From: Athripsodes cinereus
Lineage: Eukaryota > Arthropoda > Insecta > Trichoptera > Leptoceridae
DNA: 64,000 bases
Assembly: GCA_947579605.1 (NCBI GenBank)
Contig: OX388325.1
Coordinates: 1,979,572 to 2,043,571, forward strand
Direction: 5' to 3'
Shown: piece after piece, positions 3,101 to 63,850 of the stretch
Layout: every line of letters begins with the position of its first letter
Position numbering within the stretch: the first letter of the stretch is position 1
Translations under genes and position numbers: made by a program
Notes under the pieces: model-generated
The model's database searches: none
Seen by the model: the letters and a program-made list of their open reading frames with translations, nothing else
What the model was told of the DNA's origin: nothing

Positions 3101-6100
3101 AAACGACTGCGAACATTGCCATAAACGGAGTGAGCATCAAACAAGTAAAAGAGTTTGTGTACTTGGGCAGCAGAATAAACCAGGATGGACGCTCCAAATC
3201 AGAAATTGTGAGCAGAATAAACCATGCAAGGATTGCCTTTAACAAAAAGTCTAAAATATTGGAATCCCCAAACATTGATTTAAGCGTAAGGAAGAACCTT
3301 ACTAAAGCCTTCGTATGGAGCATTTTGCTTTATGGTTGTGAGACATGGACCATCAGCAAGATTGAAAGCGGACGGTTGGCGGCCTTTGAGATGTGGTGCT
3401 ACAGACGCATGCTGAAGATCCATTGGTCGGAACACGTAGAAAACAAAGAAGTATTAAACAGGGTAGGCGAAAAAAGGCAACTCCTTAAGAGTATCAGCCA
3501 ACAACGAGCTAACTGGATTGGCCACAACATCAGGCACCCAGGACTCCTCATCGCCATCGCGGAGGGTAGGACCGAGGGCACAAACGGCAGAGGCCGGCCC
3601 AGAGATGCGTATATGGACCAACTGAAGAGGGACATGAATTGTGGCTCATACGTAGAGCTGAAAAGACTGGCTGAGTATAGGGAGGAATGGAGAAGAAAGA
3701 CAAAACTCGTTGCAGACCAATCCAATGGATTGTAACTCATTATATATATGCATTATCAGATTATCTGTTACCTACTTGATCTTTTAAAATTGCGAAAATA
3801 TTTCTATATTAATTTATTTACTTATTTTATTCTTCACTGTACATTGGTTACAATATTACATAATGAAATAGTGGCATAAAAATAACAATTATAAATTCAA
3901 TGTACAGAGGGCGAGTTTATCGCTAAAATGCGATGTCTTCCAACTAACCAGGTAACTAAAAATAAAATAAAAAATAAAAAAAACACATGCATACATATAT
4001 ACACCCTTACATATCAACAGTCATAAAAGAAATAAAAATACAACACAAAGTAAACAAAAGAAAAGAAAAAGAACACATGCAAGTAACAATGCACTTACGG
4101 ACACATGATAATAAAAGTTATAAGATATTAAATTGCAGTGTGCACATGCATAGGGAAAGGGAAAAGGATTTAGGAGTCAGATGCTAAATTCAATGAGAGA
4201 AAATGATTTTTGACAGCTTGTCTGAAAGAATTAAAGATTGTTATCATCCTGACTTTCGAAGGAAGATTGTTCCAACAGCGAGCACCATGAACAAGGAATG
4301 AGTTAGATAAAAAGCTTGTAGGTACTCTGTGCTGGTATAGCTAGAAGACGCTCTCACTCTGTTAGATCGCAAGGGTAAACCATGACTCGCTAGATACTCG
4401 AATTTGACTTTAAGATAGTTAATATCCGAAGTAAGGAATTTTATTTCTTATTCTTTATCCATTACTAGCTGACCCAGCGAACTTTGTACCGCCTAACAAT
4501 CAATACATGATTAAAAATTTTAATCTCAAAGTGTGTCATCGTACAGTGTAATAAAATAAAAATCATTTATGTTGAACAATAGTATTAAACTCAGATTTGT
4601 TTATAAATTATCTGCTGTACGTTATATAATTATGTATGTAGGTACTTATTTTTTTTAGGTAGATACCTATTCATTTTAAATTTATAAAAATTATGGAAAT
4701 AATTTTTCAAAATTGAAATTGCAGAACCACAGATGTTAAATTGTATGGATAACGATTCTAATTTGAAAATGTATACAATAATTATTCTATAATTAGAACA
4801 ATCTATAAAAAAATAATATAATCGTTGATTTTGTATAATTCTCCATATTGCATTTTTTATTGACATTAAAAATGTATGCCGTAAATAATTTTCTTCGTAA
4901 TTTTTCTTCCCGTGAATTTGTAACTTATTTTAATAGCCTATCTGCTATATTCGGGGTGGAGAAGAATCCAACAAATCAGAGATCATTCAAATCGGTACAG
5001 CCATTCTTGAGTTATAAATGGTGTAACGAACACCACTTTCTTTTATATAATATATAGATATCAGATTTTTAAATCATGATGATTATTCTATAGAAGGCTT
5101 CTATATCAGTTGGCTTGTCTAGTTTCATTCCTAGGATAAATAATTCCTAAAGATTCTGAAGTTAATTAAATTTGGATGATTTCTTCTATTTTTGCATCAT
5201 ACAACTTTTTATTGACACATTTTTTTTTATTTCAATCATTTGACGTGCGATGATTCTATAGCCAGACAAAATCTAAATACGATCTTAATCTTAATCATAC
5301 GACGCGCGAAGCGACTATTTGTCAAAAATACGTGCATACCAATCTCGCGGTTAGTGTTGTGGAATTCTCAAGAAATATTTTTTCAGAATTAAAAGAAGTA
5401 GAGAATTTACCGAGATTTTTTTTATTTTTTATTCAACAGTATAATAATAAATACTTTATTGAATCAATCAATAACAATGTACAGATGTTGAGACAATTTA
5501 TCACTAATACAGCTACAATCAATTATGGAAACAAAAAATGTTAGTTACTAACATAGAAAAAAGTGATAATAACTGATGAAAAATCTTGATATTTGACACC
5601 CCAAATGCCCATATTTTAGTTTAAAAAAATTGCAGGTACGTTACATGGAAAAAATGTTAATAACCTCTGATTTGGACCTTGATCAGCCCCACAAATTTTT
5701 GTATCAATAAGGTTGGCTGCGAAGTGTACTGGGCGAAAGTTCATAATACCGCTAAGAAAAATTATGGAGAGAAATTGCTCTTCCATCAGAGGAGAAATTC
5801 TCGGAGAAATTTCTCTTAAGATCAAGACTAGATTGAGATCGTATTAAGATTGTATCAAGAGTAACCCTGCTGTGTGTACACGAATTTTGGATTATAGTCA
5901 CTTAGCGCATCGTAGAATTAAGATCCAGACAAGATTATTAAAATCGTATTTAGATTGTGTTAAGAGTACCTACTGGACCCTGCTTATGAATCTATTTTAA
6001 TTTTTCGATTTTTATAATATTAAGTATTAATTGTTATTATACTACAAAATATGTTATTCGATTTTATGACAAATCACAATCCAATTTGGCAAACGTGTTT

Positions 6101-9100
6101 TTTTTTCATTAATTTAATTTATTTATTTTATTCATTTATTTAAATCAACACACGGCGTGAGCCTTTTACATGTTAATCTATAGTCTAGCAGTATAACAAA
6201 CAACAAACAGACACAATAGTCAAGAATATGTACATTTTTGTATAAATTTGAAGTAACTAATTAACAAGCAACAGTCAATAAAAAAAAAACTAAGCAAAAG
6301 AAGGCAATAGGAAGCAAAAGGTCTACGATAAATAAATTACATTAATTATGTCAATACAAACAAGCATGAATATGTCAGATAAAAAAAAAAAAAAAATTCC
6401 AATCAGAAAAAACAATGATAATATGTTGATAGTATGCTATAAGGATGATTAGAATATCAATAAATATAATAATAACAATAATAAACACTTTATTGTCAAA
6501 TATACAAATATTTTACAAAAGGCGTACATATTGCCATGAGGCAATGTCTTCCAGTAAACCTACTACAATGTTTGAGAACTGTTTTACTATAAATTGAGTT
6601 TAGATCAAAAGATAAACAGAAAATGAAATATATAATATGAAACAAGAATACCTATATAAATATAAAGAAAAAAAATAAAAGATAAAAATGTAAGCATTCA
6701 CAACCATAAACCTATATATTATATGTATCTAAGTGATAACTATGTACTATTGATGAGATGGTGGTTTGTTTATGAGGGATTTTACTTTATGTTTGAATGA
6801 GCCTATAGTTGAAGAGGACCGAATATCATTGGGGAGGTTGTTCCAGATTCTGGTAGCATGTACGGTAAAAGAAGATGAATAAAAAGGATGTACTATGAGG
6901 TGGGAATTCTATAACAGTACAAAATAAAATATAGTACAAAACAAATAGATATTAATTATATTATTAAAAAAAATAATGGAATAAAATATTAGTTATAAAA
7001 ACAAACAGAACAAGAAGAAGGAACACATCACACTATTATTGCTTCTTAAAGAGTGGATTCGAAATCGCAATCCAAATGTTTATAAGTTATCCAATTTCTG
7101 ACTTAAGTACTTTTTTGAATGATGTATTATACTAACTGGTTTCGGGGTAATTTCAATGTCTGATTCTTCATAATCAACTTCACCATCTTCTGTTGGAGTT
7201 GTCACAGTAATGGTTGGTTCAGTTGTCTGAGTTGGATCAGGTAATGCACCAACTGGAAGGTTGCTTCCAGTACCAGCTGCATCAATACCAACCTAAGTGA
7301 GAAAAAAAAAGAAAATTCTCTTACAAAACATAACAATTTGCAGTCGTTAAAATTTCAACACATAAGTAAATAGATGTAAAGCAACACATTAGATTGACAA
7401 TGTCCTCATAAGACGAAAGACGTCTCTCTCACAAAATAAAATCTTTAGTAGAATAAAACACCTGTTTTATTTTTTCGATATGGAATTCTACTACCTAAAC
7501 ACCGACACAGTGAATACAACACATTAGTATGTTAATAAGGCAGGTATTCGAAAAAATTAAGACATTGTACATCTTAAATTCAGCGATGAGGTTTGCCACC
7601 CATCCTGAATATCTTGATTTTATATTGGCACGAAGAGGACAGCTTGAATGTTTCTTACATGCGGCTGGTCTGCTGGTTACCCCACTTGTGGGATGTGCCG
7701 TGATGGTATAGTAGTAGTAGTTGTAGTATGTTAATAGAAGAAAAAAGTACAAAAGATATTAATAATGCTCTGCTAAGTTAAAACGGAGTAATTACCTAAA
7801 CACAAATGTGTGAAAATCACAGGCCTACCTTTTGTGTGTATTTTTTCCAATATTAAAAAACAAATATACCAGATTCGTCACAAATTGTCCCTCTTCTGAC
7901 TTACAGTCGTATCTGCCTAAATTTAAATTGTTCAGGAGAGCGTTTTTTGTGTTTTGTCGTGCATATTTTCGTCTCTCCTAGTTATATGATACAGTGTAAA
8001 TATATTACATTATTTTATAAGTGCCTATTCCTTTTTATTTCAGAATCATTTTTGTGATAAATTTTGAGGAATTAGTAGATACAACACATTATATTTGGAC
8101 AGAGATGTGCAAAATACTTTCAAAAAAGTATTTAAATACAAAAACTTTTGAATTTTTGTATTTCAAATACAAAATACTAAATACTTTTTCAAAATGGTAT
8201 TTAAATACAAAATACAAAATACGTATTTTCAAAATACTTTTTTAAAATACCTTTTTAAAATACTTTTTACAAATAGTCGAACAAGGTGTAAGACAGAAGT
8301 ATTTAATATTTAAACCATTGATTGAAATTAAAAACTGGACAAAAGTATACATAAATGGAGAAAGGGTTGACATGATTCGATATAGCATTGCTTGCAGACA
8401 ATTGATGAATGCCATTGATGAATGAAAAACTGGACAAGAGTATACATAAATGGAGAAAGGGTTGACATGATTCGATATATCATTGCTTGCAGACAATGAG
8501 GATGAGCCTTTAGAAGAACTGTCAAAATAGAAAAAAAAAATTAAGTCATGACAAAATGTACGGTTTAGAGGGTTATTTTTCCCGGATTATTTTCGTTCCC
8601 GGGAAACGGGAAATTTAAAAATGTATTTCCCGGGATTCCCGGGAAATTCATTATAATATTTATTAATATTCAATTTTCAACAAATTTGGTAGAAAAACTC
8701 GCAAAACTTGTTGACCCTTGCAAACATTTTGATTTGATAAAAAAAAATCAATTTTTTGTTACCAATATAAGTTATTTGCTTAAAAAAAACTAAATAGTCG
8801 ACTGACGAGATTTATTTAGGTAGGTACTCTTTGTTATATCAAAATACAAATTGTTTACAAAATATATAAATGTACTTTTAACTTTTATTCACCCTATCAA
8901 CCAAATAAATATTATGGATTTTGGCAAAGCTTTTTTAATAAACAAAAATCGAGTTCTTTTGGTGATTTTTGACTTCAAAAAATGAGAAATTTTAACAAAA
9001 AAGTGATTTTATAAATCGGGTAATATTCATGAATAAAACAAAAAATTGACAGTTTGCTGCACTAATATTTTTGAAAAATATCTAACTTTACGAAATAATA

Positions 9101-12100: not shown

Positions 12101-15100
12101 TGCAATTCTGATCATCTGAATGTCTCCCTGCAAAACAATTAAAATTTATTAAAAATTAAAATGTACCTATTCTAGTTTTTTGACAACCGGATGTCGGAAA
12201 CTGTATTTACTTGCTCAGAAGTGTCATTTTTGGATTCAAACCATTCTAGATGAATCATTTACATTGATTCAATTCCGAAAAACTTTGTATATCAATTGTT
12301 ACAAATTTATATTCTGGTGGCTGCCGCCCAATTTTCAATCTGTAAACAGTTTGAGAAAATTCACGATTTTCTTTGCATTTCTGTTCACGAATGGACCACT
12401 TGCAGATTTTTTTTATTAGATAAAATTGTAAATTAGTATGAAAGAGACACAACCACAATTTATTTTAATTTTTCTGGCACTATTTTCTTAGATTTTAAAA
12501 ATTGTATTTTCTCGGAGTGATCAAAAACGATATGGCGGCACTGTGACGTCACGGAGTCCAGTGAATCATAATAACTTTCGCACCATAGATTATAATCTCA
12601 TACACACATGGGACTCCGTGACGTCATCAGCTGTCAAAAACCATTTAATGTGTTTTGCCAAAGGTCAAAAAATTTGGATTTTGTTTTTGGAAATTCTCCA
12701 AAAATTAGATATCTTAATTCGATCATTTTTATTAAAAATACCCTATGACTGCAAGTGGCCCATTGTGAAAAAAGGTAAAATTATTACTTTAATAATTATT
12801 TTTATATCTAATTTGGTGAGGTTTGCCACACATCCGGAACGTCTTGAATTTTTATTGGCTACCCCACTTGTGGGATATGCCGTGATGGTGTAGTAGTAGT
12901 AGTAGTTTTATTTCTAGCTTTAAAAATTGATATTTTCTGTTTGTTCCCCGGGAGCTTGTCCGGTTCGCCCGCCCCACCGTAAAGATCGCTAGTGATTGGG
13001 TGCACATCATTTTAATTGTTATTCTTAACTGGTATTATAATCTGAGACATCATTCTAAACTTACAGTAAAGAAGTCCTCTTCCGAAAGCTGTTTTCCGAC
13101 AATGATAACCCCCATGGTGTTGAGTTTGGATGAGGTTAATCTCTGCAGAGTTCTGGTGACTACCTTACGGTCACAATCAACAAGGAGAGTCATGGAATCT
13201 CCTTTCACACTCAGTCCAAGACGATGCCACCTGAGGAATCATATATTTTAATATTTAGACATCCACATGGATCAAATGATGATGGACATGCGCTGCGGAA
13301 CTAGAAAGATTTCCAGGGAATTTTTTGGGGAAATTGAATAAGAAGATGAAGAAGATTAAGAAAGAATAAACAGACTTATTGCTAACGAATCCAGTGGATT
13401 GTGACTCGGAAGAAGAACAATGTAAGAAACTGAAATGAATTGATATTCAAAGGTTTTCTGGCTGGTCACAGTTATTAGGATTTACTACGTCTAGATTTTA
13501 GAAGCGACGTAGAGAAGATTTTTTAAATTGCAATTTTTAATAATTCAAAATTAATATTCTATACTATTAATTAATAAGAGGGATAGAAAGAGAATGGAGG
13601 CAATTGAGATGTGATCCTATAGATGAATTATGGAAATATCCTGGAGGGACCACAATATCTCAAATGACGAAGCTGTTAACAGGATCGAAAGAGAAAAGCA
13701 CCTACTCAAGACCATTTCAATCGATTGAACTTTCTACACGAAATAGTTTTTTGTTTTTTGATTAGAAAACTCTGGAAAATAGATGCATTCTCCGGCTTTT
13801 GAACTATCATATTTTTACTAAATATTATGTCTAATAAATATTATTTATAGTTAATAAGATGTTCACATACTTTCCATCATCAATGCTGACTCCGAACGAT
13901 ATCATATTGCCATCAATTGGATTGCCATCAATGTCTTCGTAGAATATGGAAATATCAGTACCAACTGATATAATGAGTTGTTCATCACCTCCATCTGAAT
14001 ATATGGTCATCAAGGTAGATTGACCATATCCTAAAATTATGATTGATAAAAAAATATTAACTTGTTAAATATATTTAATATTTTGAATGTTTTTAGTATT
14101 CTACAAAGCACTTCCATTATTCGATTATTTGAATCGCGATCGATTTCGGTAAACCTTTACCATTGACGAGCGATACAATACTGTAATACATTAGTATTGT
14201 ATTGCTTGTCAATGGTACCTAAAGATTTACCGAAATCGATCGCGATTTGAAATAATCAAGTAACGGAAGTGCATTGTAGAATACTGAAAACATTCAAAAT
14301 GTCACGAAACTGTTACATAGTTAATCCTTCTTAAACATATTTGATATTAATAAAACACTGTTTAAAAGGCTTGTATCACCTTTGAAAAAAGCAATTTTGG
14401 CACTTCGTCGCAAAAAGTTCCACTCGTGGCGGAGCACTGTCTGACGTCATCAGCCGCTACAAACCAGTACTAAGAGTGAAATGTGTGCCAATACAACATA
14501 GCGCCTAGCGACGTCACAGCGTGATTATTCAATAACAGAAAATATGTATTTTTGAAATGAAAATAATGAATGGAATGTTTTATTTTATCGTTTCTTATTA
14601 AGATATTCATGATCAGCGTATGTAGTGTCGCTGAGTTACGAAATCCGCTATAACACATTTTTGTAATACAGAGAAAATCGATAAAAACTATTATTTAAGT
14701 ATTAAGCAAACTTTTTTGAAATAAATTAACTTTATTGATTGTAAGATTGGTGTAACAATTTATTTTTAAAATAAATATTGTGATTAAATAAAAAAAGACG
14801 GTTCATTTTGTATAAATAAAATTTCACGTGTCGGCTTTTGATAGGCACATGATGTTAAAGCGGGTTTCGTAAGACACACAGGATGATATAGTGGATTTTG
14901 TTAGAACTACATTTAAGTGCAACATGATAATTTATTCCAGTGGCGTCAATAAATTAAAATGCTGATATTTTATTTTAACAATTATTTTTTTATATAAATA
15001 AAGCATGAGTATTTATATTTCAATAAAAAACGTAAATTTTAATGAATTAACAAAATACGTTTTATTACTTGCTTTTTTCTACAGAAAATGTAATATTTTC

Positions 15101-20776: not shown

Positions 20777-20900
20777 CTGAAATTGAAACAGACAGAGGAT
20801 TAATCTACATTTTCGAGATAAATACATTTTTTTAGAACTGCAGGGCTACTCTTATCATGATCTAAATACGACCTTACCTTTAATCTTGTCTTTATCTTAA

Positions 20901-21686
20901 GGGCCCCGTTTAGCAAAAACGGCAAAATATTCAATTTTCAACAAATTTGATAGAAAAAGTGCCAATACTTGTTGACCCTTGCGAACACATTGATTTGATA
21001 AAATAAAAAAAACAAATATTTATTACCAATATTAGTTTTTTACTAAAAAATAAATAAATCGCAGACTGACGAGATATATTTAGGTAGGTACTCTTTGTTT
21101 TATCAAAATACAAATTATTTGTAAAATAAATATATTTTTTATTCATTCTATCAAGCACATAAATACCATAGATTTTAGCAAACTTTTTTTAGTATATAAA
21201 AAAAAGAGTTCATGTGGTGATTTTTGGTTGCAAAATATGAGAAATTTTATCCAAAAAAATAATTTTTAGGTCGGTCAATATCCATGAAAAAAACAAAAAA
21301 AAATAGTTTTTTTTGTTCTATAACTGTAATAACTATCTAAATATTCTCAATATTAAAATAAATATATGAAAATTTGTAGGATTCTCGTGCATTTATGTAC
21401 CAAACACACCCCCGAATTCGATTTTTAGAAATATGCTTTTTTATAAACGAACGCTATGAAGCAAAAATCGAGTTTTTTTTTTAAAGCTAAAGTTTGATAT
21501 ATCGCTTCTCGGCCTGTTGGCTAAGATCAAAGTGTAGTATCTGTTCTTGAAGTTTGATATTGGTAAATAATATTTGTTTTCATATATTATCAAATCAAAA
21601 TGTTCGTAGGGTCAACAAGTTTTGAGAGTTTGTGTACCAAACTTGTTGAAAATTGAATGTTTTATCGTTTTTGCTAAAGGGGCCCC
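20901..21686. mobile_element. piggyBac-type MITE, GGGGCCCC family, copy 1
   Basis: Ends in GGGCCCCGTTTAGCAAAAACG with TTAA at the left (20897-20900). A sister copy at 42903-43579 has TTAA on both sides. This copy is interrupted by the U2 snRNA fragment at 21501-21549. 20842-20896 is a piece of the CAGGG foldback family. Confidence 0.65.
21501..21549 (+). pseudogene. U2 snRNA retro-insertion (5' 48 nt, 3'-truncated)
   Basis: ATCGCTTCTCGGCCTGTTGG and the following 28 bases match the 5' end of U2 snRNA (from memory of the conserved sequence), apart from one change in the CCTTTTGG loop region. The copy starts exactly at U2 nucleotide 1 and stops after GUUCUU. It is flanked by AAGTTTGATAT at 21490-21500 and 21550-21560. 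Sister MITE copies at 43.0 kb and 63.4 kb carry this site only once. Confidence 0.88.
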
Positions 21687-21944
21687 TAAAATGTATACAC
21701 CAAAATTCAAAAATCTATTATAATAAATACCTACTTGTAGTATTGTTATAAAGTTTTTGAACACAGATATTTCAGGCACAATGCTGGTATTTTGATCCCG
21801 CATTTTGAGCCTAATCCTTTGATATCCTGTATATCTGAATGGGTGAATTTTGCCCGGCATTAGACTGTTTAGTTTTTTTATCACTTTGTTTATATTTTCG
21901 GCATTAACTATATTATAATTTTATTTCTATTATTTTAGATTACT

Positions 21945-22236
21945 ACACTGAGAAAAATACTAACGAAATTTCACAACGAAACATTGGTACGTACTATCAG
22001 ATTAGGACCAGAGATAGTACAAACGATTCTATAATATTACGAATAATAATATACTACGAAGAATATAAATAAATAATATTAACTTTTCGCAAACAAATTG
22101 TCGGTAAATTTACCAACGACTTGTTTGCGATAGGTTAATATTATAGATTCGTACTGATGAATCGTTTGTACTATCTCTGGTCCTTATCTGATAGTACTTA
22201 CCAATGATTCGTTGTGAGTATTTTTCTCAGTGTATG
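21945..22236. mobile_element. Foldback MITE (CACTGAGAAAAATACT ends)
   Basis: Long arms mirror each other (GTACTATCAGAT, GGACCAGAGATAGTACAAAC). CACTGAGAAAAATACT at the left is complemented at the right end. Confidence 0.65.
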
Positions 22237-32747: not shown

Positions 32748-32998
32748 GGAGCACCCGGCTAAGAATTGGTCTCCACTCTTTTCCGTAAGTTTTCGAACGT
32801 CCAGTAAAAGGCGGTGTTCGAAATAATAAAGTCATTTTACATCTTAATTTCAGCGACGAGGTTTGCTATCCATCCTGAATGTCTCAATTTTTTTGTTGGC
32901 TCGTAGAGTTTGACAGATTTCATGTTTATTACGTGCAGCTGGTCTGCTGGCTACCCCCTTTGTGGGATATGCCGTGATGGTATAGTATGGTGTAATAG
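32748..32998 (+). mobile_element. Retroposon family A, long copy
   Basis: Starts GTGGAGCACCCGGCTAA and ends GCCGTGATGGTATAG. It aligns to the minus strand of 44362-44625. Confidence 0.65.
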
Positions 32999-33164
32999 AT
33001 TTTTATATATTTTCATTTTTTTTATTTGACATATCCACAGACTTTTTACAAATATAACACATATTTATTTAGGTAATATGGCTGCATAAAAAAGACCCTG
33101 GAATAGAGATGAATTTTATATTTTTTAAATAAATTTTGTTTTTACCTTTTATTTGTAAGTATAC

Positions 33165-34445
33165 CTACATTATGCACTTTTAATTAGTGTCCTGTAAGAG
33201 GCAGTGGTAGGTATTTGTAAGTATACATACCTACATTGAAATGAAAAATACCTACATTGTGCACTTTTAATATTAGTGTTCTGTAAGAGGCAGTGGTAGG
33301 TGTTTGTAAGTATACCTACATTGAAATGAAAAATATCTACATTTGTAAGTATACCTACATTGAAATGAAAAATACCTACCTACATTGTGCACTTTTAATT
33401 AGTGCCCTGTAAGAGGCAGTGGTAGGTAGGTATTTGCAATTATACCTATTTATATGAAAATGAATTTAAATTGTGAAAATGTGATACTTGGTGTTGTATA
33501 ATATTTCTGTGAAATAAATTATTATTGTTATTATGCACTTTTAATTAGTGTCCTGTTAGAGGCAATGGTAGGTATTTGTAAGTATACCTACATTATGCAC
33601 TTTTAATTAGTGTCCTGTAAGAGGCAATGGTAGGTATTTGTAAGTATACCTACATTATGCACTTTTAATTAGTGTCCTGTAAGAGGCAATGGTAGGTATT
33701 TGTAAGTATACCTACATTATGCACTTTTAATTAGAGTCCTGTAAGAGGCAATGGTAGGTATTTGTAAGTATACCTACATTGAAATGAAAAATACCTACCT
33801 ACATTGTGCACTTTTAATTAGTGCCCTGTAAGAGGCAGTGGTAGGTAGGTATTTGCAAGTATACCTATTTATATGAAAATGAATTTAAATTGTGAAAATG
33901 TGATACTTGGTGTTGTATAATATTTCTGTGAAATAAATTATTATTGTTATTATGCACTTTTAATTAGTGTCCTGTTAGAGGCAATGGTAGGTATTTGTAA
34001 GTATACCTACATTATGCACTTTTAATTAGTGTCCTGTAAGAGGCAATGGTAGGTATTTGTAAGTATACCTACATTATGCACTTTTAATTAGTGTCCTGTA
34101 AGAGGCAATGGTAGGTATTTGTAAGTATACCTACATTATGCACTTTTAATTAGTGTCCTGTAAGAGGCAATGGTAGGTATTTGTAAGTATACCTACATTA
34201 TGCACTTTTAATTAGTGTCCTGTAAGAGGCAATGGTAGGTATTTGTAAGTATACCTACATTATGCACTTTTAATTAGAGTCCTGTAAGAGGCAATGGTAG
34301 GTATTTGTAAGTATACCTACATTGAAATGAAAAATACCTACCTACATTGTGCACTTTTAATTAGTGCCCTGTAAGAGGCAGTGGTAGGTATTTGTAAGTA
34401 TACCTACATTATGCACTTTTAATTAGTGTCCTATGAAAGGCAGTG
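33165..34445 (+). repeat. 62-bp tandem satellite with higher-order structure
   Basis: About 16 units of ACTTTTAATTAGTGTCCTGT + AAGAGGCAATGGTAGGTATT + TGTAAGTATACCTACATTAT + GC. A ~147-bp variant block, including GATACTTGGTGTTGTATAAT, recurs at 33388-33535 and 33806-33953 (about 418 bp apart), so units 33388-33805 form a higher-order repeat. Confidence 0.9.
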
Positions 34446-35505: not shown

Positions 35506-36054
35506 CAGTCGATTCCACTTAATTGGCACAACCGCTTATTTGGGACAAACCTCAAAGAGCAGAAACCATTAGTAAATTTATATGTTTAATTGGGACAACA
35601 TTCCGCTTAATTGGGACAGTAAATTTAAGATCACAGCACATATTATGCTACACATATTCTCAAGAAAAAATATGTACAAAGAATTTGATATGATGCGTTA
35701 TGTCACAGCTGATTATATTACATATTTGTTATTTATATGATAATTTATATTACCTATATGTAATTTACAGTTTCCAAGAGTTTATAAAATAAAATTATTG
35801 AAAAAAAATGCATTGTTTAATTTTATGTGTGTATTACTGGTTAATGGCCTTAGCTCCAAAACCAAATAACTACTACTACTACTATACCATCACGGCATAT
35901 CCCACAAGTGGGGTAGCCAGCAGATCAGCTGCACGTAAGATTCATGCAAACTTTCCAAACAAACCAAATAAATGTATTGAAAAAAATGTGAAATTCGCTT
36001 AATTAGGACAAAATGCCCAAATCCCGATATGTCCCAATTAAGCTGAATCGACTG
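35506..36054. mobile_element. pogo-like MITE, copy 1
   Basis: TIR CAGTCGATTCCACTTAATTG and complement (AATTAAGCTGAATCGACTG), flanked by TA on both sides. It contains a family A retroposon at 35871-35955. 35100-35500 is AT-rich with nothing recognised. Confidence 0.7.
35871..35955 (-). mobile_element. Retroposon family A with target duplication
   Basis: The (TAG)n tail on the left is next to AACCAAATAA. The same ten bases follow the right end. The sister pogo-like copy at 50.5 kb has an uninterrupted site. Confidence 0.7.
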
Positions 36055-37266: not shown

Positions 37267-39708
37267 CTATTCCACCGGTTGGAATAGTGGTGCGATCGAA
37301 GAAGATGAGATATTACCCTCATTTCTGATCTCTCTCCTGTAAAACTTGGCAAAAGTGTTGGCGCTTTGCCAGTTTCCTCTTGACAATATGTCGTCTAACT
37401 TAAAGTTTTCCAGCCAGTTTAAGGATGCCACTGCCGAGCGTATACTCCCTGGAGTGCTTTCTATTCCTGCATTTTTAAGAATAGATTTGACCCAGTTTGC
37501 AATCTTACATCTTGTTGCTGGCTTTGGATTTGCGCTACCAGTAATAAACAAGGACCTTTTGGTATCTTCACCTGTCCTGAGATCTCTAGAGAGATCCATC
37601 ACCTTTTTAATCCAGTATACAGGACAGATATTCTTGTCCTTTCCCGCTTTTAATCTCCAACCTGACTGTCGATACGACAAGGTATCAGTTTTGGAGCCGT
37701 ATACTGGCCACAGTACTATATCCTCTTCGCTGATAATTATCCTGTCAGGGGTACAATGTAGTAAAGTTAAGTCCTGCACCCTCCGACCTGATGCCAGCAG
37801 AAGTAGGGCACAAGCTCTTCTATTTGCTTCATACAGGCTATCCTTATTAGGGGGGTTCTCTTTAAGCCACGAGAGAACTTGCCTTGGGTCCCATATAGGT
37901 GGTTTATCGCCTCTAGGCTTAGATAACTGAATTGCTTTCATCATTCTCTTAACGAGAGGGTGAGATGCTAGGTTTTGTGCTGTTGGTCTACAAAGGGTGG
38001 CTACCACAGATTTATGTAAGAGAATTGTATTAGGTGATAGTTTCCACTTTAGGTGTAGGTCAGAAAGAAACCGTGCTAAGTCTGATCCTCTTGGCTTTGC
38101 CACGTTGATACAATTGTTCTGGGCCCAGTTCTTCCAACGTTGCCAAGGTGCCTTGTATGAACTAAGAGTCGACGCTCTCCAACCTTGTCTGAGCAAGTGT
38201 TTTTGTTGGCTATTCCAATTACTCAATGACCTTTCCCACCCCCACACCTCCAAACTTCCAGTATCAGATGGTTCAGGAATGGAGGAGGTTTGCCGGTCGT
38301 GGTGTTCACCAGAACTGCTGACAAGTTGTCTATCCTCCTGGGAGGATCTGTCGCTCGATTCTTTAGGTCTCCCCTCCAGAAGACTTTGTGCCATTTTGGT
38401 GCTACCACCAGATATATGCCTTGGGCTTGATTCAGATGGTTCAATACTTGAGGCATCAGACAGGGGGGTGGAAACACCCAAGCTAGTCTGTGATTCCATG
38501 CTTGGCTGAATGCATTGTGGAATACTGCCTGCTTGTCGAGGTGGTCTAAGGAGACATATGCCTCTACCACGTGAGCTGTTTGGGAGGCAAACAGATCTAT
38601 TTCCGGGGTTCCCCATTCCCGAAATATTGTAGAGGTAGCTTCTGGAAGTAGATGCCATTCCGACGGTAGCTGCTGGCGAGACAGGCAATCCGCAATCCCG
38701 TTGAACCTTCCTGGCAAGTACTGTGCCTTTATTGTGATGGAGTGTTGATCCACCAGTTCTAGGAGAGTTCGAGTCAGGATCAAAAGAGCCCGTGACCTTG
38801 TTCCCCCTTCCTTGTTTATGTAGGATACCACTGTCCTGTTGTCGCACTGAACCATGAGACCCGAGTGCGCGAGGTGTTCGGCGTGTGGTGACAAGGCAGC
38901 CAGCACGCCAAGCATCTCCTTCTGATTGCAATGTAGGTTCTCTTGATGTGTTTTCCAAGTACCTTCCAGTTGTTGGTTGTTCAAGAGTGCTCCCCATCCT
39001 ACGTCTGAAGCGTCTGTCGTGAGCAGATTTATGTATGGGGGATGATGAATTAAAGATCTTTCGCTTATATTGTGTAGCCACCAACTTAGATCTTCCACTG
39101 CTTCTGCATTTAGAAGGAATCTTTGAAATTTTGGAAATTTCCTTAACTTCTGGCTGAGCATCTGGAGCCTTCTGCAATGTAATCTTCCCCGAGGGACGAC
39201 AAAGCTTGCGAAGTTTAAGAACCCCAAGAGTACTTGGGATTCGTTTAGGGACCACTTCTTTCTTTTCAACACTGACGAGAGATAAGCACTGGTCCTTTGT
39301 ACCTTGTCTTCCGGAAGCCATTTTTTGTTCTCCGCTGTTCCCCATTTCACCCCTAGAAAGTCGAGTTCTTGCGTAGGAACTAGAACGGACTTGGTATGTT
39401 GGATGCTCCACCCTAGATGTCTCAGAAAGAACACCAGCTCCTGGGCTTGTCCCTGTAGCACCTCGCGAGACTGATTTGTTATCAAAAAGTCGTCGAGGTA
39501 AACCACTATTCTGAATGATTTCCCTCTCAGGTATTCGGCCACCCAATTGGTCACTGTGGCGAATGTTTTTGGGGCTGAGCTGAGTCCGAATGGCAGACAA
39601 GTCATTTGAAAGAGGTTGTCTTGATAGATCAAGCGCAGGAATCTGCGATGAGATGTGTGAACTGGAATGTGGAAATAGGCATTGGATATATCCAGTTTTA
39701 TCATCCAA
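37267..39708 (-). CDS. DIRS tyrosine recombinase, in a long frame overlapping RT/RNase H
   Basis: The open frame has 813 codons. Only the last ~320 (from about NWNSQQKHLLRQGWRASTL) look like a recombinase: a core-binding region, then catalytic ASGRRVQDL (Arg), TPGSIRSAVAS (second Arg; His replaced by Ser/Gly context) and NTFAKFYRRE with the nucleophile Tyr at residue 790. The first ~495 codons overlap the RT/RNase H frame in another phase and are Ser/Arg-rich without a recognisable domain. Overlapping RT and YR frames are known in DIRS1. The true start is uncertain and may be near 38.2 kb. Confidence 0.8.
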   Translation of the reverse strand: MDDKTGYIQCLFPHSSSHISSQIPALDLSRQPLSNDLSAIRTQLSPKNIRHSDQLGGRIPEREIIQNSGLPRRLFDNKSVSRGATGTSPGAGVLSETSRVEHPTYQVRSSSYARTRLSRGEMGNSGEQKMASGRQGTKDQCLSLVSVEKKEVVPKRIPSTLGVLKLRKLCRPSGKITLQKAPDAQPEVKEISKISKIPSKCRSSGRSKLVATQYKRKIFNSSSPIHKSAHDRRFRRRMGSTLEQPTTGRYLENTSREPTLQSEGDAWRAGCLVTTRRTPRALGSHGSVRQQDSGILHKQGRGNKVTGSFDPDSNSPRTGGSTLHHNKGTVLARKVQRDCGLPVSPAATVGMASTSRSYLYNISGMGNPGNRSVCLPNSSRGRGICLLRPPRQAGSIPQCIQPSMESQTSLGVSTPLSDASSIEPSESSPRHISGGSTKMAQSLLEGRPKESSDRSSQEDRQLVSSSGEHHDRQTSSIPEPSDTGSLEVWGWERSLSNWNSQQKHLLRQGWRASTLSSYKAPWQRWKNWAQNNCINVAKPRGSDLARFLSDLHLKWKLSPNTILLHKSVVATLCRPTAQNLASHPLVKRMMKAIQLSKPRGDKPPIWDPRQVLSWLKENPPNKDSLYEANRRACALLLLASGRRVQDLTLLHCTPDRIIISEEDIVLWPVYGSKTDTLSYRQSGWRLKAGKDKNICPVYWIKKVMDLSRDLRTGEDTKRSLFITGSANPKPATRCKIANWVKSILKNAGIESTPGSIRSAVASLNWLENFKLDDILSRGNWQSANTFAKFYRREIRNEGNISSSSIAPLFQPVE

Positions 39709-39899
39709 TCTTCCGCCTGCAAGAATCCTGGAATTCGTTGCATATTTAAAAGCTGAAAGTTGCTTACCTTTGTATACCTGTTCAGTGGCCTTAGATTTAG
39801 CACAGGTCTTGTTGTACCATCTGCTTTGGGTACCAGGAACATTCTGGATACGAAGGAGGGCGATGGCTCTGCCTTCTCTATTATTCCCAGGCGTAACAT
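38223..39899 (-). CDS. DIRS reverse transcriptase / RNase H polyprotein (N-terminus in gap)
   Basis: 558 residues visible; the frame is open into the gap, so the first Met is not the start. RT: LKLDISNAYFHIPVH-type motif A (Asp70 region), LPFGLSSAPKTF (102-113) and YLDD (134-137). RNase H: TTDAS (Asp296), KEML (Glu328), QCDN (Asp353) and GIADCLSR (Asp404), so all four acidic catalytic positions are present. The C-terminal PEIDLFAS ... FPPPCLMPQVLNHL ... VAPKW block is the conserved DIRS extension. No stop or frameshift seen: possibly intact. Confidence 0.88.
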   Translation of the reverse strand: MLRLGIIEKAEPSPSFVSRMFLVPKADGTTRPVLNLRPLNRYTKVSNFQLLNMQRIPGFLQAEDWMIKLDISNAYFHIPVHTSHRRFLRLIYQDNLFQMTCLPFGLSSAPKTFATVTNWVAEYLRGKSFRIVVYLDDFLITNQSREVLQGQAQELVFFLRHLGWSIQHTKSVLVPTQELDFLGVKWGTAENKKWLPEDKVQRTSAYLSSVLKRKKWSLNESQVLLGFLNFASFVVPRGRLHCRRLQMLSQKLRKFPKFQRFLLNAEAVEDLSWWLHNISERSLIHHPPYINLLTTDASDVGWGALLNNQQLEGTWKTHQENLHCNQKEMLGVLAALSPHAEHLAHSGLMVQCDNRTVVSYINKEGGTRSRALLILTRTLLELVDQHSITIKAQYLPGRFNGIADCLSRQQLPSEWHLLPEATSTIFREWGTPEIDLFASQTAHVVEAYVSLDHLDKQAVFHNAFSQAWNHRLAWVFPPPCLMPQVLNHLNQAQGIYLVVAPKWHKVFWRGDLKNRATDPPRRIDNLSAVLVNTTTGKPPPFLNHLILEVWRCGGGKGH

Positions 39900-42840: not shown

Positions 42841-45077
42841 CTGAAAAAATAATTAATGATAAAGTAGGTACTACACTATACTGTACTATTGTCATAGCTT
42901 AAGGGGCCCCTTTAGCAAAAACGATAAAACATTCAATTTTCAACAAGTTTGGTACACTAACTCTCAAAACTTGTTGACCCTACGAACATTTTGATTTGAT
43001 AAAATATGAAAACAAATATTAATTACCAATATCAAACTTAAACTTAAAAAAAAAACTTGATTTTAGCTTCATAGTATTCGTTTATAAAAAAGCATATTTC
43101 TAAAAATCGAATTCGGGGGTGTGTTTGGTACATCAATGCAGGAGAATCCTGATTACAACTATAGAACAAAAAAAAAACTATTTTTTTTTTGTTTTTTTCA
43201 TGGATATTGACCGACTTAAAAAAAATTTTTTGATAAAATTTCTCATATTTTGAAACCAAAAATCACCACATGTACTTAATTTTATCTATACTAAAAAAAG
43301 TTTGCTTCAATCTATAGTATTTATATGCTTGATAGGATGAATAAAAAATATATATATTTTACAAATAATTTGTATTTTGATATAACAAAGAGAACCTAAA
43401 TAAATCTCATTAGTCTGCGATTTATTTATTTTTTAGTAAAAAACTAATATTGGTAATAAATATTTGATTTTTTATTTTATCAAATCTATAAATGTTCGCA
43501 AGGGTCAACAAGTTTTGGCAGTTTTTCTATCAAATTTGTTGAAAATAGAAAATTTTACCGTTTTTGCTAAACGGGGCCCTTAAGCTGTCAAAAATCACTT
43601 CCTTTGAATTTCACTGAATTTAGCATCTGACTCCTAAAACCCTTTCCCCTATGCATGTGCACGCAGCAGTGTATGTATGTTCTACTTTTTTTATTATTAT
43701 TATGTGTCCATGAGTACATTGTTGCCTGCATTTGCCTTTTTCATTTGTTTGCTTTATATTGTATTTTTGTTGATTTTAATAACCGGGTTAGTTGGAAGAC
43801 ATCGCATTTTAGCGATAAACTCGCCCTCTGTACATTGAATTGTATAAATGATATTTTCTATGTTAATTTGTATGTATTATTGTAAACAATGTACAGTGAA
43901 GAATAAAATAAATAAATAAATATCCCAAGTGTGGTAGGCAGAGAAAACTGAACGCCATATAGATCTGTCCTTACACACTTCTTTCGCTTCTCCTACATTC
44001 ACATAATTTCTCATGCACACACGTCGATTTCTCTTACTCAACAAGCGACCGTCCTAGTATACATATTTATATGTATTGTACGTATTAACAGAGGACCGGT
44101 GTGGCGCGGAGGCTAACGCACTTGCCTTTGAGTCACGAGGTCCCGGGTTCGATTCCTGGCCAGGGGAAAATGAAGAATGACCTTTTTCAGATTGTCCTGG
44201 GTCTGGGTGTCATGTATATGTGTTTAGTGTATTGTATATATGTGTATCGTCGTGTTAGTACCCATAATACAAGATTCATTTCTAAATTTGGGACTAGCTC
44301 GGTCTGTGTGAATTGTCTATACCTACATCTTATGTCTTATGTTATCTTATTTAAATCCTAAGGTAGGTACTACTACTATTATACCATCACGGCAAATCCC
44401 ACAAGTGGGGTAGCCAGCAGACCAGTCACATGCGGTAAACATACAAGCTGTCATTCCCATGCCAACAAAATATTAAGACATTCAGGATGGGTGGCAAAGC
44501 TCATCACTGTTGAATTTAAGATATAAAATATATTTATTTTTTCCAACACCTGCCTTTTACAGGACACCTGAAAACTAACGGAAAAGAGTGGGAGACCAAT
44601 TCATTAGCGGGTGCTCCACGGAAAATAATTATTGTGAAATTGATTGTCCACTAACCAAACTGATTTCCCTGACGTGAGACTTCTCCAGTTTGTCTGAAGG
44701 GTACAGAGGATGTGTGCCCGGATAACTCTCCTCTAGATAGTTCATTATATTCAGGGACTCTACTAGAGTCTTACCACCTGCAATTGATAACAAAGAAATA
44801 AATAATAAATATTCAATGAACAATAAAAATTAGAAAAAAATTAAAATTAGAAAATCAAAATTACAGATTCTATTATGATAAAACAATAGTAACAGATAGA
44901 CAAATACATCATAAAAGACCCGGTTTAGTATTGCATGATAAACGTAATAATAAAATAACGTACCTAATAGACATCGCTGTCCCAAATACACATAATATAC
45001 AAACAACCGTCGCAGAAAAAATACGTAAATATACAGAACTAACAGGAGAAATAAAAAATATTTGGCATTCTAGGTCC

Positions 45078-49506: not shown

Positions 49507-50079
49507 CCGTACCTACTACTACTACTATACCATCACGGCATATCCCACAAGTGGGGTAGCCAGCAGACCAGCTGCATATAAAACATGCAAAAAACGTATG
49601 TCTATGCAAAAAACACGTAGATATGTGAAAATTGACGAAAAAACCAGGCCAGCAGACCAGCTGCATATAAAACATGCAAAAAAAACGTAGATATGTGAAA
49701 ATTTTCGAAAAAACCAGGCCAGCAAATAATGTTAATAATATAGATATAAGTAGATAAGATAAAAAATACTTTTTACAAGTTTAAATAAATAGTTCGTTAT
49801 GGATTCGAATGTTTCGTAATTTTGTCGGCAATTTGAAAAATAGAATATTGAATTAAAAATCGCGCAAATTGGCAAAGACAAAACAGAAAACTGCAATCAT
49901 AACATTATCATCCAAAAAAATTTAGACGTCACAAAATAAAACATAACCTCAATTTACTATTGAACAGTTTGAGAGGTTCGCCGTCCTTGTAAATTTGCGC
50001 AAAGGAAAAAACGAGTAAGTTGATCGTTTTATTCAATACAAATATAATAAAAAATATTACTTAAACTTACCTTAGCCAT
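42620..50079 (-). CDS. GstZ: Zeta-class glutathione transferase / maleylacetoacetate isomerase (last exon not found)
   Basis: Catalyses glutathione-dependent cis-trans isomerisation of maleylacetoacetate in tyrosine breakdown (family knowledge). Exons on minus: 50071-50079 (MAK), 46936-47110, 44656-44777 and 42620-42840; phases all match. The protein has the zeta signature SSCSWRVRIAL (Ser12, Ser13, Cys14), NPIQKVPAL with the cis-Pro, an ES pair (TLVESLNIMNYLEE) for glutathione, and IASGIQPLQN and GDYCVGNKITIADVCLLPQIYNAKK of the C-terminal helical domain. 175 codons are present; relatives have ~215, so ~40 C-terminal codons are missing. They should lie further left, possibly in or beyond the DIRS/gap region. 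Introns are filled with MITEs, SINEs and LINE ends. Confidence 0.9.
42903..43579. mobile_element. piggyBac-type MITE, GGGGCCCC family, copy 2
   Basis: GGCCCCTTTAGCAAAAACG ends flanked by TTAA on both sides (42899-42902, 43580-43583). It has no U2 insert and serves as an empty-site reference. In GstZ intron 3. Confidence 0.7.
43590..44060. mobile_element. LINE 3' end (+) and LINE scrap (-)
   Basis: 43590-43918 is the plus-oriented copy of the 3816-4200 3' end (GGAAGACATCGCATTTTAGC ... AATAAATAAATAAAT). 43919-44060 repeats part of 664-800. Confidence 0.6.
44095..44625. mobile_element. SINE family 2 (+) abutting family A retroposon (-)
   Basis: 44095-44360: GACCGGTGTGGCGCGGAGGC, B box GGTTCGATTCC, body to GTGAATTGTC. 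44362-44625: full family A unit on minus. Both lie 30 bp beyond GstZ exon 3. Confidence 0.7.
44656..44777 (-). CDS. GstZ: GstZ exon 3
   Basis: 122 nt encoding GGKTLVESLNIMNYLEESYP and on to REISL. Acceptor AATTGCAG. The donor is GTTAGT, the same non-consensus form as Mp exon 7. It joins exon 4 in frame (REISL-MIASGIQPLQN). Confidence 0.9.
44878..45578 (+). pseudogene. C-terminal fragment of restriction-endonuclease-type LINE, split by a SINE
   Basis: Reads KRNNKITYLIDIAVPNTHNI, EKIRKYTELTGEIKNIW and, after the SINE, IPLVMSATGVIPKSLIINLQ. This is the region of R2-like LINEs that follows the PD..D endonuclease motif. The 3' UTR runs to 45578 and is shared with 21690-22390. Confidence 0.55.
45077..45222 (-). 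mobile_element. tRNA-derived SINE family 1 (head and 54-nt tail)
   Basis: On minus: GTTCGTCGGTAGCCTGGAGG, B box GGTTCGATCCC, truncated body, then a run of 54 A (T on plus, 45079-45132). Confidence 0.7.
45592..45848 (-). mobile_element. Helitron-like fragment
   Basis: The minus strand begins TCTATATAAATAAAAATGAG at 45848, preceded by A. It contains ACTTGAGAACGGCTGAACCG. The 3' end is degraded (TTTAGT instead of CTAGT). Confidence 0.55.
46120..46490 (+). mobile_element. LINE 3' UTR and tail
   Basis: Matches 20080-20452; ends AAAAGGCTTTGGCCGTGAAT and AATAAAAAAA. 46491-46930 has a second short tail near 46850 and nothing else recognised. Confidence 0.55.
46936..47110 (-). CDS. GstZ: GstZ exon 2: thioredoxin-fold N-terminal domain
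   Basis: Acceptor TGTTTTCAG; donor GTAAAT; 175 nt, phase 0 in, phase 1 out. Contains the SSCSWRVRIAL active-site motif and VPAL. Confidence 0.93.
47223..47709. mobile_element. hAT-type MITE with 8-bp target duplication
   Basis: Ends TAGTGATGTG and CACAACACTA, flanked by GTTGTATT at 47215-47222 and 47710-47717. Its partner at 5351-5818 is truncated. Confidence 0.75.
47745..48395 (-). pseudogene. LINE scrap, AGAGATGCAAC repeat scrap and family A scrap
   Basis: 47757-47940 reads WRDDITQLAGVNWIQTAQNQ on minus (LINE C-terminus). 47993-48130 is a piece of the 60167-60553 element. 48300-48395 is part of family A. Confidence 0.5.
48602..49030 (+). pseudogene. Restriction-endonuclease-type LINE C-terminus
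   Basis: KLYWDRPIQTDRTILANRPD-IVLVDRRRRKTYIIDIIIPHD: P-D and I-D pairs fit the PD-(D/E)xK motif of R2-like endonucleases. It then reads AHEIKDMWRTPTTIIVPIVL and KLGVDDRLKYSMQKAVLLSS after an in-frame stop at 48811. Confidence 0.6.
49325..49735. mobile_element. SINE family 1 body with 74-A tail, then tandemly duplicated family A end
   Basis: 49325-49503: SINE body and uninterrupted poly(A) of 74. 49515-49600: family A end. A ~100-bp segment (CCAGCAGACCAGCTGCATAT ... AAAACCAGG) is then tandemly repeated to 49730. Confidence 0.65.
50071..50079 (-). CDS. GstZ: GstZ exon 1 (start codon)
   Basis: ATGGCTAAG followed by a consensus donor GTAAGT; it gives MAK in front of PLLYSFWRSSCSW. Nine coding bases only. 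5' UTR extends right of 50079. Confidence 0.8.
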
Positions 50080-57115: not shown

Positions 57116-57597
57116 AAGAAAAATTATTATTACTGCCTGAAAGGAACTTTTAAAATATTTGATATTTGTATGTACCATAAATAAAATTAAAGCATTCAAT
57201 ATTGGTGGCATGCGAAATCTCTGAATTATGTTAATTTTAATGGCGTCCGGAGAATTTTGTTTTGTATCCATGCGAAATTCGCCCGATGATATTCCCAAAT
57301 GTGAACACCACATAAACAGCACCAAATACAAACTGTCTTTATTATTATTATTGTGCGGAGAAGGTTTCTGTAAAGTTATATTCTTAATATAGGTATTCAT
57401 AGTGTAATAAAAATACAAATCAGACACATTCTCTTCACACAAAAATTTACTTTTTGATAAATATTATACAAGTTACATATATAATCGAAAATAAAAAGCA
57501 GCAAATTGGCTATCATTATAGAGGAAGTTTGTGCCCATACCAACTTAGTTTCCTCTCTTCTAGCCATTGCTATTTATGTCAGTAACCTTTTATATTT

Positions 57598-57945
57598 ACT
57601 ACTATTACTACTATACCATCACGGCATATCCCACAAGTGGGGTAGCCAGCAGACCAGCTGCATATAATAAACATGCAAGCTGTCCTCTCCGTGCCAACAT
57701 AAAATCAAGACATTCAGGATGGGTGGCAAACCTCTTTTATATTTAGTAACATCATAAATATATTTAATTTTTAATTATTAAGAATTAATATAATGAAAAC
57801 AAAATTGTTTTTGGTTTTACTACGATTTATTTGTTAAATAAGTTACCAGGTTTCGACCTATGAGGTCATTGTCAAACTAAAAAAACTCAAAAAACTTTTC
57901 GTAGTAAAACCAAAAACAATTTTGTTTTCATTATATTAATATAAT
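57598..57945. mobile_element. Family A retroposon (-) and a palindromic Penelope-like repeat
   Basis: 57598-57735: family A with (TAG)n tail on the left. 57785-57945: arms AAACAAAATTGTTTTTGGTT mirrored around GTTTCGACCTATGAGGTCAT, which resembles a degraded Penelope-type end. 57116-57597 holds nothing recognised. Confidence 0.5.
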
Positions 57946-63062: not shown

Positions 63063-63225
63063 TTACAACTATACATAGATAAAGTTAATTAGGTCAATCA
63101 AGAGCAAATGTGATCAATACCTCAAAGTAAAATGAAATTTCTAGGAACAAAATCAAAAATCATTCTATATGCACCTTATAATAATTTTATTCATTCAAAA
63201 TATGCAGATACATCTGTGATCTTAA

Positions 63226-63850
63226 GGGGCCCCTTTAGCAAAAACGATAAAACATTCAATTTTCAACTAGTTTGGTACACAAACTCTCACAACTTGTTGA
63301 CCCTACGAACATTTTGATTTGATAAAATATGAAAACATTTATTAATTACCAATATCAAACTTTAACTATAAAAAAAACTCGATTTTAGCTTCATAGTATT
63401 CGTTTATAAAAAAGCATATTTCTAAAAATCGAATTCGGGGGTGTGTTTGGTACATATATGCACGAGAATCCTACAATTTTTCATATATTTATTTTAGTAT
63501 TGAGAATATTTAGATATTTATTACAATTATCGAACAAAAAAAATCTATTTTTTTTTGTTTTTTCCATGGATTTTTTTTGATAAAATTTCTCATATTTTGA
63601 AACCAAAAATCACCACATGAACTCAATTTTTTGTATACTAAAAAAAGTTTGCTAAAATCTATAGTATTTATATGCTTGATAGGATGAATGTAAAATATTT
63701 ATATTTTACAAATAGTTTGTATTTTGATATAACAAAGAGTACCTAAATAAATCTCGTCAGTCTGCGATTTATTTATTTTTTAGTAAAAAACTAATATTGG
63801 TAGTAAATGTTTGATTTTTTATTTTATCAAATCAATATGTTGGCAAGTAG
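63226..63850. mobile_element. piggyBac-type MITE, GGGGCCCC family, copy 3 (right-truncated)
   Basis: TTAA then GGGGCCCCTTTAGCAAAAACG; it shows the unoccupied U2 target site near 63360. 63851-64000 shows nothing. Confidence 0.65.

What the first reader, a model, noticed from the sequence alone, without database searches (positions are those of the whole stretch)
21490..21560. 3'-truncated U2 snRNA copy inserted into a MITE, with target duplication and empty-site controls
The first 48 nt of U2 snRNA (ATCGCTTCTCGG ... GTTCTT) sit in one copy of the GGGGCCCC MITE, bounded by an 11-bp duplication (AAGTTTGATAT). Sister copies at 43.0 and 63.4 kb have the site once. The copy starts at exactly U2 nucleotide 1 and lacks the 3' end and any poly(A). 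That is opposite to normal LINE 5' truncation and like the 3'-truncated snRNA pseudogenes reported in mammals. It suggests U2 RNA used as template (self-primed or template-jumped) by a LINE machinery in this insect.
Basis: partly seen in the sequence, partly recalled or inferred. Interest (0 to 1): 0.8.

Follow-up and report, generated by a model that had tools for sequence, protein, structure and literature searches.

The report
Broken-off splicing-RNA copies in moth-like DNA
A piece of the splicing RNA U2 was copied into DNA and pasted into a small transposon in a genome that looks like a moth's or butterfly's, and it is one of about twenty such U2 pieces there, most of which stop at a short motif that resembles the tail of an abundant jumping element in the same genome.

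Summary
Window 21501-21548 equals nt 1-48 of the host's own U2 (48/48). It sits in one MITE copy between identical 11-bp repeats plus one extra G; two sister copies have the site once. It is not isolated: a 65-nt U2 query finds 6 genes and 22 5' fragments in the 716-Mb assembly. Eighteen of 22 start at nt 1, and 10 of 22 have target-site duplications (TSDs) scoring above all 462 mismatched-flank controls. U1 has a parallel truncated set (19 copies), but without clear TSDs. These are tailless snRNA retropseudogenes, known from mammals, anole and maize; my library searches listed none from insects. What is new is where they stop. U2 and U1 each hold one GUAGU (34-38, 133-137); 14 of 22 U2 ends (35-39) and 10 of 19 U1 ends (134-137) fall there. 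An abundant hairpin-tailed retroelement in this genome (39 copies in ~288 kb held) ends in GGTATAGTAGTAG. I propose that snRNA GUAGU imitates that tail or serves as a switch point from it. The idea is post hoc. The window's own copy (end at nt 48) lies outside the motif, and target complementarity is not significant overall.

The parts
21501..21548 (+). U2 snRNA nt 1-48, 3'-truncated retropseudogene
   Evidence: Rfam U2 62.1 bits; 48/48 to the host U2 genes
21549..21549 (+). one extra G between U2 and the right TSD
21490..21500 (+). left target-site duplication AAGTTTGATAT
21550..21560 (+). right target-site duplication AAGTTTGATAT
20900..21687 (+). host MITE copy with GGGGCCCC ends
43029..43039 (-). 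empty site in the sister MITE (42902-43583)
63352..63362 (-). empty site in the sister MITE (about 63225-63850)
7674..7728 (+). hairpin 3' end with (TAG/GTA)n tail of the abundant retroelement
12859..12904 (+). hairpin and (GTA)n tail, second copy
32951..32987 (+). hairpin and short tail, copy with a tRNA-like box about 590 nt upstream
35870..35916 (-). hairpin and (TAG)n tail; 11-bp TSD TTATTTGGTTT
44368..44425 (-). hairpin and tail, further copy
49510..49559 (-). hairpin and (TAG)n tail, further copy
57597..57645 (-). hairpin and tail; TSD AAATATAAAAG read by eye

Best explanation
The segment is a tailless (3'-truncated) U2 retropseudogene. A LINE-type reverse transcriptase nicked the MITE, began copying U2 RNA at an internal place instead of at its 3' end, ran to nt 1, and the staggered cut left an 11-bp duplication. 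Shown by sequence: insertion of host U2 nt 1-48, TSD, empty sites, and a genome-wide class of the same build. Inferred: target-primed reverse transcription and the kind of enzyme. For most members of the class (not for this copy) I further infer that the enzyme starts at, or switches to, the GUAGU of U2 and U1 because it resembles the (GUA)n tail of an abundant resident hairpin-tailed LINE/SINE family; I give that sub-step about 0.42. The confidence below is for the retropseudogene reading.
For: 48/48 identity to the host U2, exact start at nt 1, 11-bp TSD and two empty sister sites. Of 22 U2 fragments, 18 start at nt 1 and 10 have TSD scores >=80, reached by 0 of 462 mismatched pairs. Flanks are unrelated apart from three short matches. 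For the sub-step: the single GTAGT of U2 (34-38) and of U1 (133-137), with 14 of 22 and 10 of 19 ends there; tail likeness peaks at nt 39 in U2 and nt 137, 135, 136 in U1; sliding the ends along the RNA reaches the observed likeness in 0 of 163 and 3 of 134 shifts; 39 tail-family copies against 0 in reversed sequence, 24 of 39 with GTAGT just after the hairpin; lost, added or re-copied GTA-like units at several U2 junctions.
Against: 12 of 22 U2 fragments have no TSD score >=80, and the 19 truncated U1 copies have no convincing TSD. The window copy ends at nt 48, not at GUAGU. The tail likeness of U2 and U1 is not exceptional for their composition (shuffles reach it in 8 and 44 of 100; 13% and 29.5% of 200). 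GUAGU lies in or beside single-stranded parts of both RNAs, so accessibility is confounded with motif. No LINE protein could be tied to the tail family. The motif idea came after seeing the data.
Confidence: 0.85

Rival explanations
1. Relaxed internal priming as proposed for mammalian L1: the nicked target strand pairs with a single-stranded, complementary stretch of the snRNA and primes there; the GUAGU coincidence is only accessibility.
For: Ends lie in or beside single-stranded parts: U2 nt 24-48 and the SL IIa loop, the U1 Sm region (consensus line). The window target shares 8 of 10 letters with host U2 52-61, a likeness reached by 1071 of 127530 window sites. Mammalian precedent (PMC5322556, PMC4476161).
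Against: Over 14 TSD-bearing loci the complementarity between target and U2 beyond the junction is not above re-paired targets in 11 of 12 settings (one at 0.009, two at about 0.09). The nick side shows no TT/AAAA-like pattern in the 10 TSD loci printed. An L1 ORF1 family search found nothing, but it had no positive control.
Confidence: 0.35
2. The template is a U2 (or U1) RNA already cut at an exposed place, copied from its new 3' end without need for pairing.
For: Explains sharp ends without target complementarity and the extra G, GTG or re-copied units at junctions.
Against: No RNA data here. Noll et al. looked for such fragments of human U2 and 5S RNA and found none (PMC5322556).
Confidence: 0.15
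3. DNA-level patching: snRNA gene DNA or cDNA captured at double-strand breaks, without a LINE nick.
For: The 19 truncated U1 copies lack clear TSDs.
Against: Copies begin at RNA nt 1 in 18 of 22 (U2) and 16 of 20 (U1), so the RNA 5' end is the boundary; repeated TSDs of 10-16 bp for U2.
Confidence: 0.06

Closest known systems
Tailless retropseudogenes of therian mammals (Noll 2015, PMC5322556, named sections read; Schmitz 2004 seen only as a cited reference)
   Same: 5'-complete, 3'-truncated small-RNA copies without poly(A), with TSDs, ends in single-stranded regions; U2 is a source
   Different: Insect host; U2 ends concentrate at GUAGU; no significant target complementarity; no TT/AAAA-like nick site; junctions with GTA-like slippage; U1 copies without TSD
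3'-truncated snRNA pseudogenes mobilised by L1 (Doucet 2015, PMC4476161, section 8 and passages read)
   Same: Several snRNAs, clustered ends, TSDs, no attached retroelement
   Different: There, complementarity and an L1-like cleavage site; here neither is shown
snRNA-LINE chimeras by template switching (passages of PMC13174262 and PMC4476161)
   Same: The snRNA part begins at the RNA 5' end; a switch from a LINE tail is one reading of our junctions
   Different: No LINE sequence beyond possible GTA-like units is attached here
SINEs with snRNA-derived heads (SINEU; seen as a mention and reference in PMC8010984)
   Same: snRNA 5' part copied into DNA
   Different: Here the U2 piece is followed at once by the target, with no SINE body
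Lepidopteran RTE LINEs and partner SINEs with short-repeat tails (HaRTE1, HaSE1; PMC3272025, abstract and passages)
   Same: Tail of trinucleotide repeats (TGA there) and 10-15 bp TSDs for HaRTE elements
   Different: The tail family here ends in (GTA)n and its LINE is unidentified

Membership tests
Tailless retropseudogene (criteria of Noll 2015, read) | 5' end (almost) complete, within 5 nt | tested here: met
   Window copy starts at nt 1
Tailless retropseudogene (criteria of Noll 2015, read) | 3' truncated by at least 10 nt, length at least 30 nt, no tail | tested here: met
   nt 1-48 of 193; target follows after one G
Tailless retropseudogene (criteria of Noll 2015, read) | TSD of 8-35 nt with at least 70% identity, starting within 15 nt of the 3' end | tested here: met
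   11 of 11 nt, offset 1
Tailless retropseudogene | target site complementary to the RNA at the truncation | tested here: inconclusive
   8/10 for this copy; not significant over 14 loci
Product of L1 clade | TT/AAAA-like first nick | tested here: not met
   no such pattern in the 10 TSD loci printed
Product of L1 clade | L1 present in the genome | tested here: inconclusive
   PF02994 search empty, no control rang
SINE with snRNA head | snRNA head followed by a shared SINE body and tail | tested here: not met
   flanks of 22 loci unrelated apart from three short matches

The most novel reading that the evidence does not exclude
A tail-requiring LINE machinery in a lepidopteran makes 3'-truncated U1 and U2 copies because the functional motif GUAGU (branch-site recognition in U2, beside the Sm site in U1; these roles are recalled) imitates its (GUA)n RNA tail, or lets the enzyme jump from its own tail into the snRNA. 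'Tailless' pseudogenes would then carry an internal tail.
Probability: 0.42. Interest if true: 0.75.

Novelty: new variant of a known kind. Interest (0 to 1): 0.6.

Why it matters
Tailless snRNA pseudogenes have been read as a mark of relaxed L1 activity (PMC5322556). If tail-requiring LINEs make them too, by mistaking a splicing-RNA motif for their own tail, the rule that template choice depends on poly(A) or on target pairing is incomplete. The 3' ends of snRNA pseudogenes could then serve as a footprint of the tail that a genome's LINEs recognise, which can be tested across existing lepidopteran assemblies.

Tried and rejected
Exact U2 and MITE patterns in viral contigs: 0 matches each. Target complementarity as the general rule: not significant. 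For this copy, pairing with the SL IIa loop looked rare with the Rfam consensus (9/10, 0.14% of sites) and weakens with the host U2 (8/10, 0.84%). TSDs for U1 copies were sought with narrow and wide windows; in the 25/40-base window and the Noll-like test only L066 stands out, and in the wide window L071, L079 and L086 also reach p<0.05, with repeats 1-22 nt from the 5' end and 8-101 nt past the 3' end. U6: 18 matches besides L087, ends scattered over nt 52-107, none with TSD score >=80 and one at 64. U4: 17 matches listed but not cut out, so not analysed. A 68-nt query for the tail family found nothing although the window holds 7 copies; the tool skips very common words, so this shows nothing. 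Linking the tail family to a LINE protein failed: the RTE-like frame in L106 ends about 2 kb before a copy. The first tail-family counts (41 at up to 4 edits; 37 at up to 3) used a best-match option that skips copies; I recounted by plain mismatches (39 at up to 3) and repeated the tail test there. Rows dropped before counts: 6 U2 genes of 28; of 29 U1 matches, 8 gene-like L058-L065 and the divergent L082, leaving 20, 19 of 22 U2 loci and 16 of 20 U1 loci. Full-length U2, U1 DNA and U5 searches were asked for but did not complete, so 3' fragments of U2 were not searched for by DNA query.

Full report
What is there. The window holds U2 nt 1-48 at 21501-21548, one G, and the 11-bp direct repeat AAGTTTGATAT at 21490-21500 and 21550-21560. 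It lies in one copy of a MITE with GGGGCCCC ends. Two sister copies show the site once, at 43029-43039 and 63352-63362 on the minus strand.

Host and source. The window is part of a 716-Mb, 160-contig assembly. The maleylacetoacetate isomerase gene at 42.6-47.1 kb has mostly lepidopteran best named hits (best 120 of 831 listed), so the host is most likely a moth or butterfly; the species is not known to me. Six full-length U2 genes are identical over nt 1-100 and carry G16; the window copy equals them over nt 1-48.

A class, not a single event. A 65-nt U2 query gives 28 places: the 6 genes and 22 fragments. Of the 22, 18 align from nt 1 and the others from 3, 4, 5 and 7. Their 3' ends are 35, 36 (2), 37 (2), 38 (5), 39 (4), 40, 42, 43, 48, 53, 58 (2) and 61. 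TSD scores of 80 or more occur in 10 of 22 loci and in 0 of 462 pairings of one locus with the 3' flank of another; scores of 64 or more in 13 of 22 against 2.2%. A different scoring gave 9 of 22 above every control and 14 of 22 at or above the 95th percentile. Flanks (400 nt each side) are unrelated apart from three short matches, one of them within a locus. The search scores only best candidates, so these counts are lower bounds.

U1 and U6. U1 gives 29 matches: 8 gene-like copies that share an upstream element, one divergent U1-like locus left out, and 20 others. Of those 20, 16 begin at nt 1; 16 end at 130-137 and 10 at 134-137, at and just beyond the Sm-like AATTTTTGG. One, L066, is nearly full length (1-163) with an A-rich extension and a clear TSD. 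The 19 truncated ones have no convincing TSD. This is a real difference from U2 and I cannot explain it. U6 gives 19 matches; the 18 besides the best show scattered ends and no TSD score of 80 or more.

Where they stop. U2 has one GTAGT (34-38), U1 one (133-137), U6 none. The window contains GTAGTAGTAGTA-like runs far above chance: 15 overlapping matches at one mismatch against 0.21 expected. They lie at the 3' ends of copies of one interspersed element with a conserved terminal hairpin, GGCTACCCCACTTGTGGGATATGCCGTGATGGTATAGTAGTAG. In all sequence held (350,125 bases, about 288,480 non-redundant) there are 39 copies at up to 3 mismatches of a 20-nt hairpin segment and 0 in the reversed sequence; 24 of 39 have GTAGT within 27 nt after it, against 28 of 2,133 background 30-mers of the window. 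Seven copies lie in the window. Exact repeats of 11-14 bp that look like TSDs were printed for five of 41 copies (35916(-), L008, L028, L062, L088), without a control, and 5' ends differ; one copy has a tRNA-like box about 590 nt upstream. It behaves like a LINE/SINE tail family; its protein was not found.

Test of coincidence. Scoring each snRNA position by its likeness to the tails, the best position is nt 39 in U2 and nt 137, then 135 and 136, in U1. Moving all ends together along the RNA reaches the observed likeness in 0 of 163 shifts for U2 and 3 of 134 for U1. The likeness itself is not exceptional for sequences of that composition (8 and 44 of 100 shuffles), so the evidence lies in position only. 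Several junctions of the U2 cluster lose or gain GTA-like units or carry G, GTG or re-copied TGTAGT (L043, L046, L048, L053, L055, L057), as expected if synthesis starts or restarts on a short repeat. The idea came after seeing the data, and the motif lies in or beside single-stranded parts of both RNAs, so I hold it at 0.42.

This copy. The window's own U2 copy ends at nt 48, outside the motif, as do four others ending at 53-61. Its target shares 8 of 10 letters with host U2 52-61, a likeness reached by 1071 of 127530 window sites, which fits pairing with the SL IIa loop; over 14 TSD-bearing loci such complementarity is not significant. At the 5' junction TT precedes U2 in 9 of 19 loci against a background of 12.9%; U1 has 6 of 16. 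This may reflect the second cut or second-strand priming.

Comparison with the literature. The copy meets the published criteria for tailless retropseudogenes (PMC5322556: introduction, methods part 1 and results read). That paper reports them from therians and the anole and 8 U2-derived ones from maize, found none in chicken or platypus, and ties them to relaxed L1. PMC4476161 (section 8 and passages) describes clustered single-stranded ends, TSDs in 70-100% and L1-like sites in mammals, and links absence of 3'-truncated copies in platypus to a LINE that needs its own 3' sequence. A lepidopteran cytogenetics paper (PMC8190105, passages) estimated 1-56 U2 copies per genome and does not use the word pseudogene in its main text. 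My library searches (listings and abstract beginnings seen) showed no report of 3'-truncated snRNA retropseudogenes from insects; that is a statement about this open-access library and these terms only.

Noticed in passing
window 42902-43583 (-) and 20900-21687 (+): The MITE copy at 43 kb is bounded by TTAA on both sides, so the family may be piggyBac-like (recalled association).
   Followed up: no
G000 loci L067-L086 (U1 copies): Nineteen 3'-truncated U1 copies, mostly ending at the Sm region, lack the TSDs that U2 copies show.
   Followed up: partly
L066 (G000:C8:3841013-3841176): Nearly full-length U1 copy with an A-rich extension and a TSD, a classic poly(A)-type retropseudogene in the same genome.
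   Followed up: partly
L086 (U1 nt 2-71): A 14-nt near-repeat lies 22 nt before and 101 nt after the U1 piece, as if a larger insertion carried it.
   Followed up: no
L078 and L083 upstream flanks: Both U1 copies follow similar sequence (ATGGCGC.CTTGAGATGGT), possibly the same repeat family.
   Followed up: no
window 37267-39899 (-): Reverse transcriptase frame overlapping another long frame, DIRS-like in look (recalled); a run of N lies near 39.6-40.1 kb.
   Followed up: no
window 2287-3735 (+): RTE-like reverse transcriptase frame, closest named hit Diaphorina citri at 60% identity.
   Followed up: partly
window 21950-22200: Long inverted repeat just downstream of the MITE, probably another hairpin-type MITE.
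   Followed up: no
window 33161-34410: Tandem array with 62-bp units and higher-order periods of 124 and 419 bp.
   Followed up: no
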